A stretch of DNA of 64,000 nt from Amycolatopsis lurida (GTDB lineage: Bacteria > Actinomycetota > Actinomycetes > Mycobacteriales > Pseudonocardiaceae), in the NCBI RefSeq assembly GCF_900105055.1, contig NZ_FNTA01000004.1, positions 7,223,501 through 7,287,500 on the forward strand, written 5' to 3'. The notes under the pieces are model-generated. The model did not search any database. It was not told the DNA's origin and was given only the letters and a program-made list of their open reading frames with translations. This document shows positions 52,117-61,473 of this stretch, piece after piece. Positions within the stretch are counted from its first letter, which is position 1; every line of letters begins with the position of its first letter. Position numbers and translations under genes: made by a program.

Positions 52117-53544
52117 CTAGGCTGACGGCCACTGGGCGGTGAGCCGTTCCACCGCCGCCTCGATGTTGACCGCACCGGCTCCATAGGTCCGGATGCTGGC
52201 TTCGACCCGCGGAGTCACGTCGTCCGGCATGCCGACGGCCACCACGATCGCGTCGGGCCGGGCGGTCAGGGCCTCGGCCAGCCGGGCCGCTTGCCAAGGG
52301 GTCCGGTAAGCGTCCCTCACCACCAGCACCACCGGGCCGGTCGACGGCAAGACCACCGGGTCGTCTTCGGCGGCGAGCACCGCCGAGTGGGCAGCGCCGA
52401 GTTCGGTCAGCCGGTCGGCGAGGCTCCAGTGGGCCTCGCCCAGCGCGTTGCCGCCGGCGCGCAGTTCGACCACGAAGGCGGGAGCGGTCAACGCGACCGG
52501 TCCGTGGACGCGCAGCGCGCGCCGCGCGGCCTCGAGCCCGAGATCGCGCGGAGCGGCCAGAGCGCGCAGAGTGGAAACTCGCGTGGCCGCGGTTTCCAGT
52601 GTCTCCAAAGAAAGTGTGCCGGCGCGGACTGCTTCGGAGACCGACGCGCGGATGACCGCGCAGAGCTCCTCACCCTCGGTCGGGCCGAGCAGCAGCAGAT
52701 CCGATCCCGCCCGCAGGGCACGGACGGCCACCGCGCCGATGTCCTGGTTGCCTTGGCCCGCTTCGATGGCGATCGCGCTGGACAGCAGCACACCTTCATA
52801 GCCCAGCTCGTCGCGGACGAGGTCGTGGAGCAGGCGGCGGCTCAGCGTCGCCGGGTTGTCCGGGTCCAGTGCGGGATAGAGCACGTGGGCGGTCATCATC
52901 GCGTGGACGCCCGCCTTGATCGCCGACACGAACGGCGCCAGCTCGCGCTCGCGGAACGTCGCATCCGGAATGTCCACAATGGGCAATGCGTGGTGCGGGT
53001 CGGTCACCGTCGCGCCGTGGCCGGGAAAGTGCTTGGCGCAGACGGACACGCCACCGTCCTGCATGGACTCGATGAACGCAGCGCCGTGTGAAGCGACCAG
53101 ATCCGGCCGGGCGCCGAAGGACCGGACGCCGATGATCGGGTTGTCGGGATCGCTGTTGACGTCGATCGACGGGGCCAGGTTGAGGTTGACGCCGCAGGCC
53201 TTCAGATCCGCCGCGATGGCCGCGGCGACCTCGGCGGTCAGCGTCAGGTCGTCGATCTCGCCGAGCGCCAGGTTGCCCGGATACGCGCTGCCGGTTTCGT
53301 AGTCGAGGCGGGTGACGTCGCCGCCCTCCTCGTCCAGCGCGATCAGCGCGTCGGGCGCCGTCCGCCGTAGCGCGCGGGTGTGCCGGACGATCGCTTGCCT
53401 GCCACCGTCCAGATTGGCCGGGAACAGGGTGACCCCGGCGAGCCCGTCATCGAGCGCCGAATGCACCCAGGCCGGCGGTGCGGCCCCGGTGTACCCGGCG
53501 AGCAGGCAGGCGTTGACGAGCCGGTCCAACTCATTCACCGACAA
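52117..53544 (-). CDS. GH3-family protein lacking the catalytic nucleophile
   Basis: A 475-residue protein with the NagZ-like glycoside hydrolase 3 barrel: ALDEEGGDVTRL (70-80), KHFPGHGATVTDPHHALP (171-188, with the His of the acid/base loop), AHVLYPALDP and a C-terminal second domain. In NagZ the nucleophile Asp stands in an SD pair of the GVxxSDxL motif; here the motif is GVLLSSAIAI with Ser256 at that place. The protein may bind rather than cut N-acetylglucosamine-type sugars, or use another residue. It is the last gene of the nine-gene operon, overlapping the HAD gene by 14 bp. Confidence 0.85.
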   Translation of the reverse strand: MSVNELDRLVNACLLAGYTGAAPPAWVHSALDDGLAGVTLFPANLDGGRQAIVRHTRALRRTAPDALIALDEEGGDVTRLDYETGSAYPGNLALGEIDDLTLTAEVAAAIAADLKACGVNLNLAPSIDVNSDPDNPIIGVRSFGARPDLVASHGAAFIESMQDGGVSVCAKHFPGHGATVTDPHHALPIVDIPDATFRERELAPFVSAIKAGVHAMMTAHVLYPALDPDNPATLSRRLLHDLVRDELGYEGVLLSSAIAIEAGQGNQDIGAVAVRALRAGSDLLLLGPTEGEELCAVIRASVSEAVRAGTLSLETLETAATRVSTLRALAAPRDLGLEAARRALRVHGPVALTAPAFVVELRAGGNALGEAHWSLADRLTELGAAHSAVLAAEDDPVVLPSTGPVVLVVRDAYRTPWQAARLAEALTARPDAIVVAVGMPDDVTPRVEASIRTYGAGAVNIEAAVERLTAQWPSA

Positions 53545-54346
53545 CGGAGTTCTCCTTCGCGTAGAGCTGTTCGAGTACGACGGCGACGCCGTCTTCGCTG
53601 TTGCTGCCGATCACGTGGTCCACCAGTGCGAGCACGTCGGGATGAGCGTTGGCCACGCCGTACGCCGTACCTGCCCAGGACAGCATCGGCAGGTCGTTGG
53701 GCATGTCACCGAACGCGATCACGTCCGAGGCCGCCACCCCGCTCCGCGCGGCCAGCCGGGCCAGCGCGGCCGCCTTGTTCACGCCGATCGCGATCGCTTC
53801 GACCAGGCGTGAGCCGTTGGAGTGGTACGCGGCGACGAGCCCCTCCAAGGCCGGCTTGGCCAGCGCGAGGAGTTCGTCGGCGGACAGCGAGGGGTGCCTG
53901 CCGAGCAGCTTCGGCGCGGGCAGGCTCAGCAGCGTCGCGTCGTCGGCGCGTTCGATCGTGGCGCCGCGGTCCCATTCCCACGGCTCGTAAACCGAGTCCG
54001 CGACCAACCGGTCGGCGTGCTCCACGGCGATACCGATGCCGGGGATCGCCGCCCGCAGCCTGGCGACCGCTTCGGCCAGATCCGGGGTCGTGATGGCGTA
54101 TTCCTCGACGACCGTCCTGGTGTGCATGTCGTACAGGTAGGCGCCATTGGAGCAGATCGCGAGGCCCCGGTCACCGAATCGGCCGGCGATCTCCGCCACC
54201 AGCCGCGGTGGGCGGCCGGTGGCGACCACGAATTCGGCGCCCGATTCTTCGACGAGCGCGAACGCCGACACCGTGCGGTCGGAGATCGTGCCGTCCGGGC
54301 GTACCACCGTGCCGTCGAGATCCGTCGCCACCAGCAAGGGCGTCAT
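53531..54346 (-). CDS. HAD-superfamily phosphatase (Cof type)
   Basis: A 271-residue HAD-IIB phosphatase: motif I LLVATDLDGTVV (Asp8/Asp10 region), VVATGRPPR (motif II Thr), late NKAAALARLA (Lys) and motif IV FGDMPNDLPML. Such enzymes remove phosphate from sugar phosphates or nucleotides. ATG 54346 overlaps the glycosyltransferase stop (ATGA); the longer frame is a shadow. In this operon it may dephosphorylate a sugar intermediate. Confidence 0.88.
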   Translation of the reverse strand: MTPLLVATDLDGTVVRPDGTISDRTVSAFALVEESGAEFVVATGRPPRLVAEIAGRFGDRGLAICSNGAYLYDMHTRTVVEEYAITTPDLAEAVARLRAAIPGIGIAVEHADRLVADSVYEPWEWDRGATIERADDATLLSLPAPKLLGRHPSLSADELLALAKPALEGLVAAYHSNGSRLVEAIAIGVNKAAALARLAARSGVAASDVIAFGDMPNDLPMLSWAGTAYGVANAHPDVLALVDHVIGSNSEDGVAVVLEQLYAKENSVVGE

Positions 54347-56124
54347 GGAATCAATCCTTCGTCCGAGAACAATCCGGTCCAGGCGTCCCGGCTGGTCAGC
54401 CGCGGCAGCGCCGCGCGGTACCGCTCGCGGACGGCGGCGCCGTCGCGGATGAACCGGGTGAGCACTCGGGCGCCCTGGTACGCCAGCCGGACCAGGTGAG
54501 CCCGGTCGTACGTGCGGACGCGGACACCTCGTTGCGACGCGTCGGTCACCACCGCCGTGCGCAGCGCGCCGACCCGCCACCAGTCGGCCTCCGAAACCGG
54601 CACGGAGCCCAGGGCGAGCCGGTGCACGCCGAGCAACGGCCCGAGTGCCAGCCGGTCGAAGACACTCGGTTCGCTGATCGCGATGTCGTTCGACGCGAGC
54701 CCCGGGACGGCCGTCGGTGGATGCGCGACGGTCTCCGGATGGCGGGAACGCACCTCGCGGATCCGCGCCAGCGCCGCGACCCCGCCATCGCGCAGGATGT
54801 CCGGCCCGTCGAGAAAGTCCGACACCGCTTGGATCAGGGTCGCCGCGGCGCCGTATCGCATGCCCAGCAGCGAGGGGATCAGCTCGGCGAGCAGGGTTCC
54901 GGCGATCTTCAGCACCGGGAAATCGCCGTGCAGCGCCGAGATGATCGTGTAGTTGCGCAGGATGAAGTACCGATTGAGCTCGTCGGAGTCCTTCCACGGG
55001 AAGTCGGTGTGCCACAGGCCCGCGCCCGGCAGTGTCACCGTCGGGAATCCGTGTGCCCGTGCCCGGTAGGAGTACTCGGCGTCGTCACCCTGGAAGAAGA
55101 GGGGGAGCGGATAGCCGGTCTCCTTGACCACCTCGTACGGGATCAGGCACGCCCACCAGCCGTTGTAACCCGCGTCGACGCGGAACTCCTGCCGGTACGG
55201 CCTGCCGGTGGCCGGATCCGTGGCCAGCAGGTCGACCGCGTGCAGGCTGTGCCGGATCGGCATGCCCGGCCGGATGCCGTCCAGGTCGGTGTACTCGGCC
55301 GCCGCGTGCAACCGCGTGGGGTGCAGCAGGTTCAGCATCTGGCCGCCGAGGATCAGCGGTTCCGCCGTGGACGCCGAAAACGCCGTCATCCGGACGAGCA
55401 GGTCGGGTTCCAGCACGATGTCGTCGTCCATGAACAGCATGTTCACGTTCTCGCCGTCGACCTCGTACAGGCCGCGCGTGAAACCGCCCGCGCCACCCAG
55501 GTTCGGCTGCCGCAGGTACCGCAGCTTGCCCGGCGGCAGAACGCCCTCGGCCGGCACCGGGTCGGTGCCCTGATCGACGACGTACACGGCGTGCACCGTG
55601 GCCTGCGCCAAGTCGTCATCGGCGATCGCGGTCAGCGTGGCGAGGCAGTCGGCCGGGCGGTTCATCGTGCAGATGGTCACCACCGTCGGCCGTGACCGCT
55701 CCGCCGCCGGAACCGTCCAGCGCACGTCGCGGACGACAAGCCGTTGGCCCGGTTCGGTTTCCCAGTCCAGCCACAACGCGCCGCCGTCGACGAACCGGTC
55801 GAGGGGGGCGACCAGCGAGATCGGCCCGCCGTCCACCACCCGCGCCGCCACCACGCGCGGCTCGCCCTCGAAGTCCGACGCCAGCAGGGAAACCGTGCCG
55901 GAACCAGCGGCCTCCAGTCCGACCTCGACGACGCCGGCCGTCGTCCAGCGCTGCCAGTAGCTGGCCGGGAACCGTCCGAAGTACGTGTTGCCGGAGACCT
56001 TCGACGCGGATTCGAGGGTGAGTGTGGTCCGCTCGCGGCGAGCGCCGCCCGAGACGACCTGAACGTAGAGATCCTTGCCGATCACCCCATCGGGCCCGGC
56101 GAACAGCCCGCGCTGCGCGATCAC
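54343..56124 (-). CDS. GT2 glycosyltransferase, GlfT2-like
   Basis: A 593-residue transferase starting at the GTG that overlaps the upstream stop. Residues about 1-145 form a beta-rich front domain (GNTYFGRFPASYWQRWTTAG). The GT-A domain follows: VVTICTMNRPADC, the DxD motif in MLFMDDDIVL, YNGWWACLIPYEVV, FFQGDDAEYSYRARAHGFPT and the LWHTDFPWKD His. This order matches GlfT2, the galactofuranosyltransferase of mycobacterial cell-wall galactan. Whether the donor is UDP-galactofuranose here is not known; the setting with Dcd-like and AurF-like genes is unlike a galactan locus. Confidence 0.85.
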   Translation of the reverse strand: MIAQRGLFAGPDGVIGKDLYVQVVSGGARRERTTLTLESASKVSGNTYFGRFPASYWQRWTTAGVVEVGLEAAGSGTVSLLASDFEGEPRVVAARVVDGGPISLVAPLDRFVDGGALWLDWETEPGQRLVVRDVRWTVPAAERSRPTVVTICTMNRPADCLATLTAIADDDLAQATVHAVYVVDQGTDPVPAEGVLPPGKLRYLRQPNLGGAGGFTRGLYEVDGENVNMLFMDDDIVLEPDLLVRMTAFSASTAEPLILGGQMLNLLHPTRLHAAAEYTDLDGIRPGMPIRHSLHAVDLLATDPATGRPYRQEFRVDAGYNGWWACLIPYEVVKETGYPLPLFFQGDDAEYSYRARAHGFPTVTLPGAGLWHTDFPWKDSDELNRYFILRNYTIISALHGDFPVLKIAGTLLAELIPSLLGMRYGAAATLIQAVSDFLDGPDILRDGGVAALARIREVRSRHPETVAHPPTAVPGLASNDIAISEPSVFDRLALGPLLGVHRLALGSVPVSEADWWRVGALRTAVVTDASQRGVRVRTYDRAHLVRLAYQGARVLTRFIRDGAAVRERYRAALPRLTSRDAWTGLFSDEGLIP

Positions 56125-57191
56125 CGGCACACCTCGGCGGTCACGGCCGCCAGGCCTGCGGCGGTCCCGGACAGCGGGAACCGGGCCGCGTTGCGCAGTC
56201 CGGCCGCACGCAGGTCCGTCAACGCGCTGTCGTCCTTGGCCAGGAGACGGACGGTGTCCGCGAGCGTGGACCGGGTGAACCGCAGCGCCGAATCGCCCAG
56301 CACCTCGGTCAACCCCGGCACCGGCTGATACGCCACCGGCAACCCGCAGGCCTGCGCCTCGACCGCGACGAGCCCGAACGCTTCCAACGTCGTCGACGGC
56401 ATCACGAGCAGGTCGTGCCGCGCGAAGGCCTGCCACAACGCGGGGCGGTCGAACCAGCCGAGGTAGTCGACTTGAGTCGTGTCCACCGGTAGTGCGGCGA
56501 ACTCGTGCTCGGGAGCCGCGACGCACAACGTCACGCCGGGCAGCCCCGTCAGGTCCGCGATCAGCTCGGCCGCCCCCTTCTCCGCGGTCAGCCGCCCGGC
56601 GTACAGCACCCGGAAGCCGTCCCGCGTCCCGGGCCGCGGCGGCGGCGAGTGCAGCAGCCGATCGGGGATTCCCCATGGCACGTGCACGATCCGCTTCGGT
56701 TCGACCGGCGTGACCTCGCGCAGGAGGCCGGCCATCGCCGAGGTCGGCACGACGACCGCGCCTGTCGACGCGGCGGCTTCGCGCAGCACGTCACGCTGGG
56801 TGGGATGCTCGGCCGCGAAGAGCAGATCGGTGCCGTGCACCAGGGCGATCCGCGGATGGTCCGGGAACGCACGGAGCAACGCGGGCGTGGCACCGAAACT
56901 CAAGTGCTGCCAATGCACCGCGTCGAAATCGGCCGGATCGAACCGACGTCGGATCGCGGTCGCCAACGCGTCCACATAGGACCAGAATCCCGGACCGTCG
57001 AGCTGCTTTCCCGGCACGTCGAGCAGGTGCGGCCCGCCGGGCTGCGCGCCGGAGCCGAGCATGAAGACGTCGGCCGCGATCGGCGCTTCCGGCGCGAGGT
57101 AGAGATCCTTGAGGAGCTCGACGCTCCCGCCGGGGCTGCCCGGCGGGAGGTCGATCCCGGTCAGTGTCTTCGGTGTCTTCGGTGTCTTCAC
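56121..57191 (-). CDS. GT4-family glycosyltransferase
   Basis: A 356-residue GT-B enzyme. The N-terminal half has GSPGGSVELLKDL (acceptor/nucleotide loop); the C-terminal half has VLYAGRLTAEKGA, DYLGWFDR and the donor site STTLEAFGLVAVEAQACGLP with the E-x7-E pattern. The first ten residues (KTPKTPKT) come from a 9-bp tandem repeat, so the start may be variable. It overlaps both neighbours by 4 bp and probably adds the first or second sugar of the product. Confidence 0.87.
   Translation of the reverse strand: MKTPKTPKTLTGIDLPPGSPGGSVELLKDLYLAPEAPIAADVFMLGSGAQPGGPHLLDVPGKQLDGPGFWSYVDALATAIRRRFDPADFDAVHWQHLSFGATPALLRAFPDHPRIALVHGTDLLFAAEHPTQRDVLREAAASTGAVVVPTSAMAGLLREVTPVEPKRIVHVPWGIPDRLLHSPPPRPGTRDGFRVLYAGRLTAEKGAAELIADLTGLPGVTLCVAAPEHEFAALPVDTTQVDYLGWFDRPALWQAFARHDLLVMPSTTLEAFGLVAVEAQACGLPVAYQPVPGLTEVLGDSALRFTRSTLADTVRLLAKDDSALTDLRAAGLRNAARFPLSGTAAGLAAVTAEVCR
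57166..57189. repeat. 9-bp tandem repeat at the start of the GT4 gene
   Basis: The unit GTCTTCGGT is present 2.7 times. It encodes the KTP repeats at the N-terminus of the glycosyltransferase. Because the unit is a multiple of three, changes in copy number would not shift the frame. Confidence 0.7.
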
Positions 57192-57712
57192 GACAGTTCC
57201 TCGTACAGCCGGGAAATGTCGATACCGGACGTGCTCGTGTACTTCACGCCGACGTGCTGATAGCTCGCCAGGGACCCGTGCGCGACCAGGAAGATGATCT
57301 TGCCGAAGGTCATCAGCGGATAGACCCGGACCGGCCTGGCCACCCTGATCTCCAGCGTCCAGTTGATCGCGTGGCCGACGTGCCCGAGCGGCGCCGAGAC
57401 ATGGACCCAGATACCGAGCCCGCCGATCGTGTGGTCACCGTTGATCATCTGCGCGTAGCGCTCGGAACGTGTCCGCTCGTGGGTGACACCGAGGTACAGC
57501 CGCCCCGGCTCGAGCACCAGCCCCTCGGGCGGGATGACGAGTTCGGTGAACGGGGTCGACCTCGCCGCGTCCAGCTCCGTGTCGAAGACGCGCATCTTCT
57601 CGCCGAGGCGCCAGTCGTACGCGTTGGGCGACAACCGGTCCGGCTCGAACGGGTCGATCACGATGTCCCCGCTCTCCAGTGCCTTCTCGATCGCCTTGCG
57701 GGTGAGGATCAC
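57188..57712 (-). CDS. Dcd/dUTPase-like protein A (has catalytic Glu, lacks RSS motif)
   Basis: A 174-residue protein of the dCTP deaminase fold: ILTRKAIEKALESGDIVIDP, then LSPNAYDWRLG and late WTLEIRVARPVRVY. Glu121 in INWTLEI aligns with the catalytic Glu138 of E. coli Dcd. The other conserved element, the RSS loop of the neighbouring subunit (GRSSxxRxG), is replaced by GDHTIGGLG (92-100). GTG 57712 overlaps the stop of the second Dcd-like gene (GTGA), so both are made in step. Alone it should be inactive; a shared active site with protein B is a testable idea. Confidence 0.85.
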   Translation of the reverse strand: MILTRKAIEKALESGDIVIDPFEPDRLSPNAYDWRLGEKMRVFDTELDAARSTPFTELVIPPEGLVLEPGRLYLGVTHERTRSERYAQMINGDHTIGGLGIWVHVSAPLGHVGHAINWTLEIRVARPVRVYPLMTFGKIIFLVAHGSLASYQHVGVKYTSTSGIDISRLYEELS

Positions 57713-58239
57713 GACGTGACCGCCACCCGGTCGCGCCAATAGCGGGATTCTTGCGGGCCGACCGCCGACTGGTACTTCCCCGCGTAGAGATCGATCTCAC
57801 CGGAGGACACGAAGAACATGATCTGGCCGATCTTCATGCCGTGGTAGACCCGCAACGGCTGCACGGGGGAGAGCATGAGCGTCCACTGGCCGTGGAAACC
57901 GATGTCCCCGATCGGTGCGGTGATCTCGACGAACAGCCCGAGCCTGCCGACCGAGGACCGGCCGAACAGCAGCGGCACGTAGATGTCCGAGCCGATGCGC
58001 TCCTCGGTGTGCCCGAGATAGAGCTGGTCGGGCTGGAGCACGTACCCGTCCTCGGGCAGCTGGATCGTCTCGGTCGGGTTCGGGTGGTAGGCGTCGACGA
58101 CCTTGTCCCGATAGGACATCAGCGTGCCGCCGAGCTTGACGTTGTAGCTGTTCGGGTTGACCTGGTCCGGGCTGAACGGGGAGATCGCGATCCGGCCGTC
58201 GGTCACCGACTCGGTGATCTCGGGCCCGGTCAGGATCAT
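57709..58239 (-). CDS. Dcd/dUTPase-like protein B (has RSS motif, lacks catalytic Glu)
   Basis: A 176-residue Dcd-fold protein: MILTGPEITESVTDGRIAIS, NPNSYNVKLG, then GRSSVGRLGLFVEITA (93-108) with Arg94, Ser95, Ser96 and Arg99 as in active deaminases. The position of the catalytic Glu holds Met122 (GQWTLMLS). It lies directly in front of the partner gene and overlaps the AurF-like gene by 4 bp. Dcd enzymes are trimers with sites between subunits, one side giving the RSS loop and the other the Glu, so A and B have complementary defects. Confidence 0.87.
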   Translation of the reverse strand: MILTGPEITESVTDGRIAISPFSPDQVNPNSYNVKLGGTLMSYRDKVVDAYHPNPTETIQLPEDGYVLQPDQLYLGHTEERIGSDIYVPLLFGRSSVGRLGLFVEITAPIGDIGFHGQWTLMLSPVQPLRVYHGMKIGQIMFFVSSGEIDLYAGKYQSAVGPQESRYWRDRVAVTS

Positions 58240-59204
58240 TTGACGCCGCCCTTGGCCGTCACGAAGTGATACTTCACCTTGTCTTCGATCCCGAGGTCCC
58301 GCAGCAGCCGGTGCACCGTGGCGAAGTCGTTCATCATGACTTCGCCGTCCTCCTTGGCTCGGCAGTCGGCGATGATCTCGTCGACGTGCTCGATACCGGC
58401 GAACCGGAGCACCTGCGGCCACAGCTCGTAGTCCTCGGCGCCGAACGCGGTGATCGCCTCGGGGAGGTACCGGATGAAGAACTCCTGCCGCTCCGGCTCC
58501 AGTTTCGGGTAGATCTCCTTCATCAGTTCGGCCAGCACGGGACCGTGCGCCGCCTCGTCGCGGGCGTGCAGCCGGGCGATGAGCGCGTGCATCGGCTGGA
58601 TGGACTTGTCGCCGGCCAGCAGGTCGAGGAAGGCGTTGATGCTGACCTCGCCGACGACCGTCCACATGAGATAGAGCAGATCGCGCTGCCACTGCTCGTC
58701 CATGCTCTCCGCGAGCGCGTAGAGCCTGCGGTTCGTCACCGGCTCCACAAAGGACTCTTCGAGACCGATCCCGCGTGCCTCACGGGTGCGCTGCATCGCC
58801 ATCATGTGCATGTAGGTGTGCCACACCTCGTCGATATGGGACTGCTGGACGACTTCCTTGACCTCGTAGCGGTCGACACCGGGGAAGACGCCGTGCGCGA
58901 GCTTCTCGAAGGTCGGGTTCGCCACGTGTTCCTCGGCGGCGATGACGCGCTCGTTGTAGGCGATCCACGCCAGCGTGTTGACGAGCAGCCGCTGCTCGTC
59001 CGACGCTTCGAGGAACCGCGGGTGCTCCGAGAACGGCATGAGGTGCAGCGGGTAGTCCAGCAGGCTGGGATCGTATTCGCCGGGGTTGACCACTCCGGCC
59101 ATGTCGGTGCGGATGGTCGCGCGCTTGGGCCAGGCCGCTGCCAGCCTGCGCAGCATGCTCGGTCCGACGTGGGTCTCCGCAAGCTCGATGGGATGCATCG
59201 TCAT
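58236..59204 (-). CDS. AurF/CmlI-type diiron N-oxygenase
   Basis: A 322-residue helical diiron protein. The seven ligands of AurF (Glu101, Glu136, His139, Glu196, His223, Glu227, His230) reappear with identical spacing as Glu91, Glu126, His129 (EVWH), Glu186 (VVGEVS), His213, Glu217 and His220 (HARDEAAH). AurF-type enzymes turn amines into hydroxylamines, nitroso or nitro groups with oxygen. ATG 59204 overlaps the deacetylase stop; ATG 59198 is an alternative. In this operon an amine freed by the deacetylase would be a natural substrate; that is inference. Confidence 0.9.
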   Translation of the reverse strand: MTMHPIELAETHVGPSMLRRLAAAWPKRATIRTDMAGVVNPGEYDPSLLDYPLHLMPFSEHPRFLEASDEQRLLVNTLAWIAYNERVIAAEEHVANPTFEKLAHGVFPGVDRYEVKEVVQQSHIDEVWHTYMHMMAMQRTREARGIGLEESFVEPVTNRRLYALAESMDEQWQRDLLYLMWTVVGEVSINAFLDLLAGDKSIQPMHALIARLHARDEAAHGPVLAELMKEIYPKLEPERQEFFIRYLPEAITAFGAEDYELWPQVLRFAGIEHVDEIIADCRAKEDGEVMMNDFATVHRLLRDLGIEDKVKYHFVTAKGGVK

Positions 59205-60271
59205 CTCTCTCCTGTCGCGAAGTTCGGGGTCACCAGGTCTTCGACGCGGACGAACTCGAGTCCGCGGGCCAGTAGTCCTTCGATCACCGACGGCAAGGCG
59301 GTGACGGTCTGGGAACGGTCGCCGCCACCGTCGTGCATCAGCACGATCGAGCCGGGAATCGTTTGCCGCAGCACGGTTCGCGCGATCACCTCCGGGCCGG
59401 GCATCGCCCAGTCCTCGGTGTCGACGTCCCACAGCGCGAGCCGCGCGCCGAGGTCCGTCAGCGAGCGGAGCACCGCGGGGGTCCGTGATCCGTAGGGCGG
59501 GCGGAAGAACGCGGGCACGGCGCCGAAAGCGTCCGCGATCACGTCGCCGGTCCGGTTGAGCTGGTCGGCCAGCTCCGTCGCCGAGAGATCCGGAAGATAG
59601 GGATGGGACCACGTGTGATTGCCGACGCCATGGCCCTGTTCCGCCATCCGCCGCAGATCTTCGCCGCGCGCGCCCGCGTTCAGCCCGACACAGAAGAAGG
59701 TGGCGCGGACCCCGTAGGACTCGAGAATGTCGAGGATCCGCCCGGTGTACGGAGGATGCGGGCCGTCGTCGAACGTGAGCGCGATCTGCCCGCGGGTCCG
59801 GTCGCCGTGCTCCAGTGAGCGCCCGGCCGCGGTCATCGCGGCCAGCGCTTCGTCGCTGGAGGCCATCGCCGCGTGATGTTCGTCCAGCCGCCCGGTGAGC
59901 GAACCCGACTCGATCTTCAAGCGCACCAACGAGCCGGGATCTCGCCACGCCGCGCGCGCCAGCTCGACGGCGGGCACCGAGCCGAAACCCGGCCTCGGCG
60001 GCAGGATGGCCGGGTCGGCGCGGTACATGTCCAGGCCGGCGGCCATGAAACCGCCGTCGAGCATGCCGTTGGTGCTGTCGACGACCGCGGTCACCGAGCG
60101 GCCGAGGCCGTTCAGATAGGACGCGATCTCCTTGCTCCGGTCCGCGGCGAACCGCACGGCCGGCCGGTCACCGTGCCCGTTCCCGTCGAGGACCGCGATC
60201 TCGAAACCCGAGGCGGTCCAGCCGATTCCGGCGTACAGCATCGATTTACCCCCATGGTGCGTGTCACTCAA
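59201..60271 (-). CDS. NodB polysaccharide deacetylase with RNase-H-like front domain
   Basis: A 356-residue protein. Residues about 162-345 are a complete NodB domain: LTFDDGPHP (Asp168/169), NHTWSHP (His219, His223), FRPPYG, WDVDTEDW and VLMHDG. These zinc enzymes deacetylate N-acetylglucosamine-type residues. Residues about 11-110 (LYAGIGWTASGFEIAVLDGN, TAVVDSTNGMLDGGFMAAGL) resemble the RNase-H-like start of IS110 transposases, but with Gly in place of the first catalytic Asp (YAGIGW for YAGIDW). No signal peptide is seen, so it acts in the cytoplasm. It overlaps both neighbours by 4 bp. Confidence 0.85.
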   Translation of the reverse strand: MSDTHHGGKSMLYAGIGWTASGFEIAVLDGNGHGDRPAVRFAADRSKEIASYLNGLGRSVTAVVDSTNGMLDGGFMAAGLDMYRADPAILPPRPGFGSVPAVELARAAWRDPGSLVRLKIESGSLTGRLDEHHAAMASSDEALAAMTAAGRSLEHGDRTRGQIALTFDDGPHPPYTGRILDILESYGVRATFFCVGLNAGARGEDLRRMAEQGHGVGNHTWSHPYLPDLSATELADQLNRTGDVIADAFGAVPAFFRPPYGSRTPAVLRSLTDLGARLALWDVDTEDWAMPGPEVIARTVLRQTIPGSIVLMHDGGGDRSQTVTALPSVIEGLLARGLEFVRVEDLVTPNFATGER

Positions 60272-61473
60272 TCCAGTCCGGCTGTGGTGAGGTGCCTGGC
60301 GGTCGCCCGCCGGACGACGACCGGTCCGGCGATGGCGATCACCGCCGCGAGCAGGCCGGGTACCACCATGGCGGTGCCCAGCGAGGTGGCGTCGGCGAGC
60401 GGGCCGATGACCGCGGGCCCGCCGAGCTGCCCGGCGTAGGCCATGGTGGTCACCCAGGAAAGCGCGCGCCCGACGTTCGCGCCACCCGCGCCGACGGCGC
60501 TGAAGATCGCCGGTACGACGGTCGCCAGACCGGCCGCCACGACCACCCAGCCGACCAGGCCGAAAGCCAGCCGTGCCCCGGGAAGCAGCGGCGCGACGAG
60601 AACGAGCGCGTACCCCAGCACGGCGACCGATCCCGCGTACCGCATCCAGCTCGCCGGGTTCACCTTCGACCGGATCCGGTCGGCGGTGAGCCGGGAAACG
60701 GTCAGCGCGGCGGCGAACGCCGTGTACGCGAACGACGCCGTCGCCGGATCCGCGCCGAGCATTCCTTGCGCGTGCAGGGAAGCCCAGCTGTAACCGGCGC
60801 CCTCGCTGACGAAACCGGCCAGTGCGACCAAGCCGAGCAGCATGATGGTGCTCGTCGGCAGCCCGGCGGAAGAGACGACCGGGTCATCCGTCACCTCGCC
60901 TTGTGTCTTGCCGGTCAGCAAATGCTTGCCGGGCAAGAGAAACAGTGCTGCCGCGACCACACCGGCGCCGACCATCAGCGCCGGGCCACCCGTTTCGAGA
61001 TGCAGGCCGATGGTGATCGTGAGGCCGCCGGCCACTCCTCCCAGGCTCCACACCCCGTGGAACGCCGACATGATCGAGCGTCCGTAGCGGGTTTCCACCT
61101 CGACCGCGTGGCCGTTCATCGCGACGTCCAAGGAGCCGAGCGCACCGCCGAGCACGAACGCGGCGACCAGCAGTACCGGAAAATTCGGGGCCAGCGCGGG
61201 GCCGAGCAGCGTGAGCGCCGCGACGGGCGCGATCACCCGTAACACCGCGCGGCTCGACCAGGCGTCGGCCAGCCGCCCGGCCACCGGCATGCAGGCCATC
61301 GAGCCGAGCGCGGTGCTCAGCAGGACCAGCCCGATCCGGCCTTCGCCGAGGTGGAGCCGGGCGTTGATCGACGGCAGTGACGCGCTCCAGACGGCGCAGA
61401 TCAAGCCGCAGAGCCCGAAAACGCCCATCACGGCCAATCTGGCGCGACGAACGGCGGGCTCGGGACGCGTCAC
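60268..61473 (-). CDS. MFS transporter, first gene of the nine-gene operon
   Basis: A 401-residue major facilitator with about twelve helices: VFGLCGLICAVWSASLPSIN, LADAWSSRAVLRV (loop 2-3 motif), GALGSLDVAMNGHAVEVE and FHGVWSLGGVAGG, a pattern like the FucP/YbjJ-type group. It starts at GTG 61473 behind GAAGGAAG and overlaps the deacetylase gene by 4 bp. It is the first gene after the operator at 61592 and could export the product or import a sugar precursor. Confidence 0.87.
   Translation of the reverse strand: MTRPEPAVRRARLAVMGVFGLCGLICAVWSASLPSINARLHLGEGRIGLVLLSTALGSMACMPVAGRLADAWSSRAVLRVIAPVAALTLLGPALAPNFPVLLVAAFVLGGALGSLDVAMNGHAVEVETRYGRSIMSAFHGVWSLGGVAGGLTITIGLHLETGGPALMVGAGVVAAALFLLPGKHLLTGKTQGEVTDDPVVSSAGLPTSTIMLLGLVALAGFVSEGAGYSWASLHAQGMLGADPATASFAYTAFAAALTVSRLTADRIRSKVNPASWMRYAGSVAVLGYALVLVAPLLPGARLAFGLVGWVVVAAGLATVVPAIFSAVGAGGANVGRALSWVTTMAYAGQLGGPAVIGPLADATSLGTAMVVPGLLAAVIAIAGPVVVRRATARHLTTAGLD

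What the first reader, a model, noticed from the sequence alone, without database searches (positions are those of the whole stretch)
59201..60271. RNase-H-like (IS110-transposase-type) domain fused to a NodB deacetylase
Seen: residues 11-110 read like the front of an IS110 transposase (LYAGIGWTASGFEIAVLDGN, AVVDSTNGMLDGG), with Gly for the first catalytic Asp, followed by a complete zinc deacetylase domain. No signal peptide is present, although NodB enzymes are usually exported. Inference: a dead nuclease fold has been reused, perhaps as a nucleotide-binding or oligomerising part that fits the nucleotide theme of the operon.
Basis: partly seen in the sequence, partly recalled or inferred. 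Interest (0 to 1): 0.75.

Follow-up and report, generated by a model that had tools for sequence, protein, structure and literature searches.

The report
Transposase-derived domain fused to sugar deacetylase
A family of bacterial enzymes that probably remove acetyl groups from amino-sugar-like molecules inside the cell carries, at its front end, a worn-down piece of a jumping-gene (IS110) recombinase that has lost its DNA-cutting residues but is kept under strong selection, which shows that transposase parts can be recycled into metabolic enzymes.

Summary
The gene is real; the start is ATG 60241 (346 aa), not TTG 60271. Residues 1-104 are an RNase H-like domain closest to the RuvC domain of IS110 recombinases: AlphaFold pLDDT 92.6; structural Z 13.0 to IS621 against 10.0 for RuvC and 9.2 for the best ASKHA kinase; profile comparison E 2.9e-7 to independently collected IS110 proteins and nothing to RuvC or RuvX. 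In 47 non-redundant actinomycete homologs the domain always precedes an intact CE4/NodB deacetylase, and both halves form one clade, so the fusion probably arose once. The first catalytic Asp is never acidic (0/47) and both last Asps are lost; the Glu position stays acidic (47/47). G59, D62, R74 and D76 are invariant, as strictly as the deacetylase catalytic residues: a repurposed site, not padding. Neighbourhoods (condensation domains, ATP-grasp ligases, AurF-type N-oxygenases, exporters; a GlcNAc-catabolism operon in the slot where NagA would be expected) favour a cytosolic de-N-acetylase that frees an amine for the next enzyme. What the IS110-like domain does is unproven; best guess, a substrate-binding or capping domain packed on NodB. 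'Nucleotide-binding' and 'oligomerising' have no specific support. No Pfam model covers the domain.

The parts
59201..60241 (-). CDS of the fusion protein, 346 aa, start ATG at 60241; its stop overlaps the start of the next gene (ATGA)
59930..60241 (-). IS110/RuvC-like N-terminal domain, residues 1-104 (strands 2-9, 12-18, 24-31; helix 36-44; strand 50-54; helix 59-67; strand 71-74; helix 91-100)
60221..60223 (-). Gly7, at the place of the first catalytic Asp of IS110 (IS621 D11); A/G/S/T in 47/47 homologs
60077..60079 (-). Asp55, at the place of IS621 E60; Asp or Glu in 47/47 homologs
60056..60058 (-). Asp62, invariant 47/47, not an IS110 catalytic position
60014..60022 (-). Arg74-Ala75-Asp76 (RAD-P motif), R and D invariant 47/47, not an IS110 catalytic position
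59792..59929 (-). linker, residues 105-150, with conserved G117-R118 and two short helices
59228..59791 (-). CE4/NodB de-N-acetylase domain, residues 151-338, with motifs TFDDGP, NHTWSHP, RPPYG, DxxDW, LMHDGG
60268..61473 (-). MFS transporter directly upstream, probably same operon
58236..59204 (-). AurF-like diiron N-oxygenase directly downstream, start overlapping the stop of the fusion gene
57709..58239 (-). dCTP-deaminase-like protein 1
57188..57739 (-). dCTP-deaminase-like protein 2
56121..57191 (-). family-4 glycosyltransferase
54346..56130 (-). GlfT2-like glycosyltransferase
53531..54346 (-). HAD-type phosphatase (named from sequence, not scanned)
52117..53544 (-). GH3 beta-N-acetylhexosaminidase-like glycosidase

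Best explanation
The protein is a cytosolic CE4-type (NodB) metal-dependent de-N-acetylase whose N-terminal domain descends from the RuvC-like domain of an IS110-family recombinase. Shown by computation: fold, kinship to IS110, loss of three of the four DEDD residues, strict conservation of a new residue set (G59, D62, R74, D76 beside the acidic 55), an intact deacetylase site, one origin of the fusion, and purifying selection on both halves. Inferred: the deacetylase unmasks an amine on a small N-acetylated amino-sugar-like intermediate inside the cell, which the next enzyme then uses (condensation domain, ATP-grasp ligase, AurF N-oxygenase, or NagB-II in the GlcNAc operon). Also inferred: the IS110-like domain no longer cuts nucleic acid; it packs on NodB and uses the edge of its sheet where an IS110 nuclease binds metal and DNA, now with D/E55, D62, R74 and D76, to bind or cap the substrate or its phosphate, nucleotide or carrier part. 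Separate confidences: IS110-derived dead nuclease domain 0.93; cytosolic small-molecule de-N-acetylase 0.6; substrate-binding or capping role of the N-domain 0.4.
For: N-domain alone: pLDDT 92.6, pTM 0.86. Foldseek top hit IS621 recombinase E 2.3e-4. VIA-align: IS621 Z 13.0, rmsd 2.4, 99 residues, 21% identity; ISCro4 12.9; RuvC 10.0; ASKHA kinase 9.2. Non-member hits of the N-domain profile are IS110 N-termini at 18-30 bits. hhalign to IS110 collected independently through PF01548: probability 93%, E 2.9e-7; RuvC and RuvX 0.3% and 0.2%. 47/47 non-redundant members carry the NodB domain; each half is one clade, support 100/100 and 100/99. Residue counts: position 7 A30/G12/S4/T1; 55 D38/E9; D62, R74, D76 47/47; NodB D158, D159, H209, H213, R247, D277, H303 47/47. 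dN/dS of the N-domain 0.17-0.32 among the three species of the window's genus, much like NodB 0.11-0.24. Full model pTM 0.85, which suggests that the two domains pack in a fixed way. Contexts: C-domain directly upstream and MFS directly downstream in a large set of loci, AurF in 12 of 46; NagK-like kinase and NagB-II-like deaminase next to the fusion in L012, in the slot where NagA would be expected.
Against: No enzymatic or binding data. About a third of loci, among them the syntenic Kitasatospora group (L184, L188, L189, L201), show no recognised biosynthetic or amino-sugar neighbours, so one substrate class may not fit all. The window's own sequence alone gives no significant IS110 hit; kinship rests on profiles and fold.
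Confidence: 0.55

Rival explanations
1. The IS110-like domain is only a solubility, oligomerisation or partner-docking module (for example for the condensation domain or a carrier protein) and takes no part in substrate binding.
For: A standalone C-domain lies at the same distance upstream of the fusion gene in many loci, which fits a fixed enzyme pair; RuvC-RuvC contacts join the two dimers in the IS621 synaptic complex (PMC11208158).
Against: Invariance of charged residues D62, R74 and D76 and of the acidic 55 in 47/47, at the edge where RNase H-like folds bind ligands, looks like a binding site. The C-domain is absent in more than half of the loci.
Confidence: 0.25
2. The domain is still a catalytic or nucleic-acid-binding unit (a nuclease or phosphoesterase with a rebuilt metal site of D/E55, D62 and D76), so the protein is bifunctional.
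For: Three invariant or always-acidic residues remain on one face of the fold.
Against: The first Asp, which with E60 holds the metal in IS621 (PMC11208158), is Ala, Gly, Ser or Thr in all members, and both last Asps are gone. No member lies next to recognisable DNA or RNA enzymes as a rule.
Confidence: 0.1
3. The N-domain is an ASKHA-type or general RNase H-fold ligand domain that resembles IS110 only by shared fold.
For: ASKHA sugar kinases share the fold and reach Z 8-9; sugar kinases would suit a sugar deacetylase.
Against: IS110 structures lead by about 3 Z units over RuvC and 4 over ASKHA, and sequence profiles find IS110 alone.
Confidence: 0.05

Closest known systems
IS110-family recombinases (IS621, ISCro4), RuvC-like DEDD domain, PF01548
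   Same: RNase H-like fold of about 105 residues, strand order and the acidic residue at the end of strand 4; nearest in structure and in profile.
   Different: Three of four DEDD residues lost, D102 loop shortened, no coiled coil and no Tnp serine domain after it; fused to a deacetylase; new invariant D62, R74, D76.
Rhizobial NodB chitooligosaccharide deacetylase (TIGR04243) and CE4 peptidoglycan deacetylases such as Bc1960 and PdaC
   Same: Complete CE4 motifs MT1-MT5; Foldseek TM to Bc1960 0.88 by target length; NodB is the best NCBIfam model for the L012 homolog, below its cut-off.
   Different: Extra IS110-like N-domain; no signal peptide or membrane anchor, unlike most of the nearest unfused relatives; found beside biosynthetic genes.
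NagA/NagK/NagB GlcNAc catabolism
   Same: One homolog (L012) sits between NagK- and NagB-II-like genes, in the place where the deacetylase NagA would be expected.
   Different: NagA is an amidohydrolase, not a NodB-type enzyme; the L012 neighbours score below the equivalog cut-offs.

Membership tests
IS110 transposase/recombinase (PF01548 + PF02371) | RuvC/RNase H-like fold related in sequence to IS110 | tested here: met
IS110 transposase/recombinase (PF01548 + PF02371) | PF01548 gathering score reached | tested here: not met
   best single-sequence E 0.055 in one of 13 members
IS110 transposase/recombinase (PF01548 + PF02371) | DEDD catalytic tetrad | tested here: not met
   position 7 never acidic, positions aligned with D102/D105 without conserved acid, only position 55 acidic
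IS110 transposase/recombinase (PF01548 + PF02371) | C-terminal Tnp domain with catalytic serine | tested here: not met
   the rest of the protein is PF01522
IS110 transposase/recombinase (PF01548 + PF02371) | bridge RNA and element ends around the gene | not tested
   not searched; the gene sits inside an operon conserved in three species of the genus
CE4 / NodB deacetylases (PF01522) | Pfam domain over cut-off | tested here: met
   124.2 bits, cut-off 23.1
CE4 / NodB deacetylases (PF01522) | motifs MT1-MT5 with Asp-Asp, His-His metal site, Arg, Asp, His | tested here: met
   47/47 homologs; motif definitions from PMC10967932
CE4 / NodB deacetylases (PF01522) | metal-dependent deacetylase activity | not testable with these tools
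   needs purified protein
ASKHA kinases | best structural or profile match to ASKHA families | tested here: not met
   IS621 Z 13.0 against 9.2 for MK0840 sugar kinase; no ASKHA Pfam family hit

The most novel reading that the evidence does not exclude
A bridge-recombinase (IS110) nuclease domain was captured once in actinomycetes and turned into a small-molecule binding or catalytic module that is essential for a cytosolic deacetylase used in several natural-product pathways, i.e. a metabolic enzyme built partly from a transposase.
Probability: 0.4. Interest if true: 0.75.

Novelty: new variant of a known kind. Interest (0 to 1): 0.58.

Why it matters
Domesticated transposase domains are usually known as DNA-binding or DNA-cutting parts. 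Here an IS110 RuvC-like domain has become a fixed part of a metabolic enzyme, with its cutting residues gone and a new set of invariant residues in place. The family is widespread in actinomycetes, has no Pfam model for the N-domain, and marks several apparently uncharacterised biosynthetic clusters, so a structure and a few mutants would directly test how a nucleic-acid enzyme fold is turned to small-molecule work.

Tried and rejected
ASKHA kinase reading of the N-domain: rejected. RuvC or RuvX ancestry: no profile signal, though IS110 itself also gives almost none to RuvC in that test. Anti-phage defence link: no PADLOC hit for the N-domain. PDB search by sequence profile gave only chance hits. 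phmmer of the single window sequence against PDB gave nothing. The window's own genome holds no IS110 over the cut-off, so no local donor element was found. Nucleotide theme: dCTP-deaminase neighbours occur in 4 of 46 loci only. Literature: searches found no paper on an IS110 domain fused to a deacetylase or on this family; the library is open-access only.

Full report
1. The gene. The ORF of the finding is on the minus strand, 59201-60271. Twelve full-length homologs found first all start at the residue that is M31-like in the DNA, ATG 60241, with a GGGGGT run before it. The TTG at 60271 overlaps the end of the MFS gene and its extra ten residues have no counterpart. The protein is 346 aa. 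Its stop overlaps the start of the AurF-like gene (ATGA), and the MFS gene ends 26 bases upstream, so the three are probably one operon.

2. The N-terminal domain. Pfam finds only Polysacc_deac_1; the first 116 residues match nothing significantly on their own. With an alignment of eleven window/locus sequences AlphaFold gives the whole protein pLDDT 86, pTM 0.85 and residues 1-108 alone pLDDT 92.6, pTM 0.86, with the order beta-beta-beta-alpha-beta-alpha-beta-alpha. Foldseek against PDB puts the IS621 recombinase, an IS110 family member, first at E 2.3e-4, level with RuvC. VIA-align separates them: IS621 Z 13.0 and ISCro4 12.9, RuvC 10.0, RuvX/YqgF about 9, ASKHA sugar kinase MK0840 9.2.

3. 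Sequence kinship. A profile of 13 N-domains was run over three sets of actinomycete genomes (394, 394 and 297 genomes, overlapping slightly). Every hit over 80 bits is a NodB fusion. The next tier, 18-30 bits, consists of IS110 transposase N-termini of the GIDWAE type, plus a few short chance matches at the bottom. Because those IS110 were chosen by our own profile, a second set was taken through PF01548: hhalign gives probability 93%, E 2.9e-7 to it, against 0.3% and 0.2% for RuvC and RuvX control alignments built from the same genomes. With the profile-selected IS110 the value is E 4.5e-14.

4. What was lost and what was kept. IS621 uses D11, E60, D102 and D105 (PMC11208158). On the alignment these fall at residues 7, 55, and about 87 and 90. 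In 47 non-redundant members position 7 is A30/G12/S4/T1, position 55 is D38/E9, position 87 is mostly Gly and 90 is P, T, S, D, A or R. The last two placements are approximate because the loop is shorter. At the same time G59, D62, R74 and D76 are 47/47, as are the NodB residues D158, D159, H209, H213, R247, D277 and H303.

5. History. In a tree of N-domains with IS110 the 47 fusions form one group, 100/100, on a long stem. In a tree of NodB domains with 29 unfused relatives they also form one group, 100/99. Most of the nearest unfused relatives begin with a signal peptide or membrane segment by eye, the fusions do not. The simplest reading is one capture event in which the export signal was replaced. 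The direction and the donor are not resolved: the tree is unrooted and the columns are few. Close pairs give dN/dS of 0.17-0.32 for the N-domain in the window's genus, similar to the NodB half; one Kitasatospora pair is higher (0.59) but so is its NodB half.

6. Neighbourhood. Forty-six loci were compared. A condensation domain occurs in 21, an MFS exporter of the two clusters used in 19, an adenylation domain in 16, KSIII-like genes in 14, AurF in 12, carrier proteins in 12. These counts include close relatives and are not independent. The commonest layout is C-domain, fusion, MFS. Others have PhyH, FAD-binding and ATP-grasp genes. In the Nocardioidaceae MAG locus L012 the fusion follows a GH4 glycosidase, a NagK-like kinase and a NagB-II-like deaminase (scores below equivalog cut-offs), and no nagA-like gene was noticed in the 17 kb. 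In the window the neighbours are MFS, AurF, two dCTP-deaminase-like genes, two glycosyltransferases, a HAD phosphatase and a GH3 beta-N-acetylhexosaminidase-like enzyme. About a third of loci, including a syntenic Kitasatospora group, show none of these.

7. Mechanism proposed. A common thread is that the fusion is next to an enzyme that would use a free amine: amide-forming (C-domain, ATP-grasp), N-oxygenating (AurF) or deaminating (NagB-II). This is the logic of Nod-factor synthesis, where NodB removes an acetyl and NodA puts an acyl in its place (established knowledge), and of deacetylate-then-ligate steps elsewhere. I therefore propose a cytosolic de-N-acetylase of small amino-sugar-like intermediates (0.6). 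CE4 specificity is set by elements that cap the substrate cleft (PMC5855634); a fixed extra domain could do the same, and pTM 0.85 for the pair suggests fixed packing. This is the basis for the capping or binding proposal (0.4). It is not shown.

8. Verdict on novelty. The NodB half is an ordinary CE4 catalytic domain by motif. The N-domain is IS110-derived but fails three defining features of an IS110 transposase (gathering score, DEDD tetrad, Tnp domain), so the protein is not filed as one. I found no Pfam model, no PADLOC family and no paper for the fusion. It is a new variant of a known kind, with a real evolutionary surprise and an open functional question.

Noticed in passing
57188-58239: Two adjacent dCTP-deaminase-like genes appear to split the usual motifs: protein 1 has GRSSVGRLG but WTLM where canonical enzymes have TLE, protein 2 has WTLE but GDHTIGGLG in place of the RSS motif. 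The split is conserved in three species of the genus, which suggests a heteromer with a shared site or non-canonical chemistry. The canonical motif comparison rests on memory; no canonical sequence ended up in the alignment.
   Followed up: partly
L012:2210-9023: Fusion gene in a GlcNAc-catabolism-like operon (regulator, MFS, GH4, NagK-like, NagB-II-like) in the slot where NagA would be expected.
   Followed up: partly
L191-L197, L199, L206: A recurring, apparently undescribed cluster: LuxR regulators, PNPOx-like, AurF, class-II aaRS-like protein, AcpS, two carrier proteins, LCM-type methyltransferase, KSIII, a gene without Pfam hit (272 aa), standalone C-domain, fusion, MFS.
   Followed up: partly
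L184, L188, L189, L201: In Kitasatospora-type genomes the fusion is in a conserved, non-biosynthetic chromosomal setting next to a lipoprotein-like gene and a LigT/2'-5' RNA ligase-like gene.
   Followed up: no
L187:10829-11557: A PIG-L/LmbE-type de-N-acetylase gene lies next to the fusion gene, together with a LegB-like dehydratase and a glycosyltransferase: two unrelated deacetylase families in one cluster.
   Followed up: no
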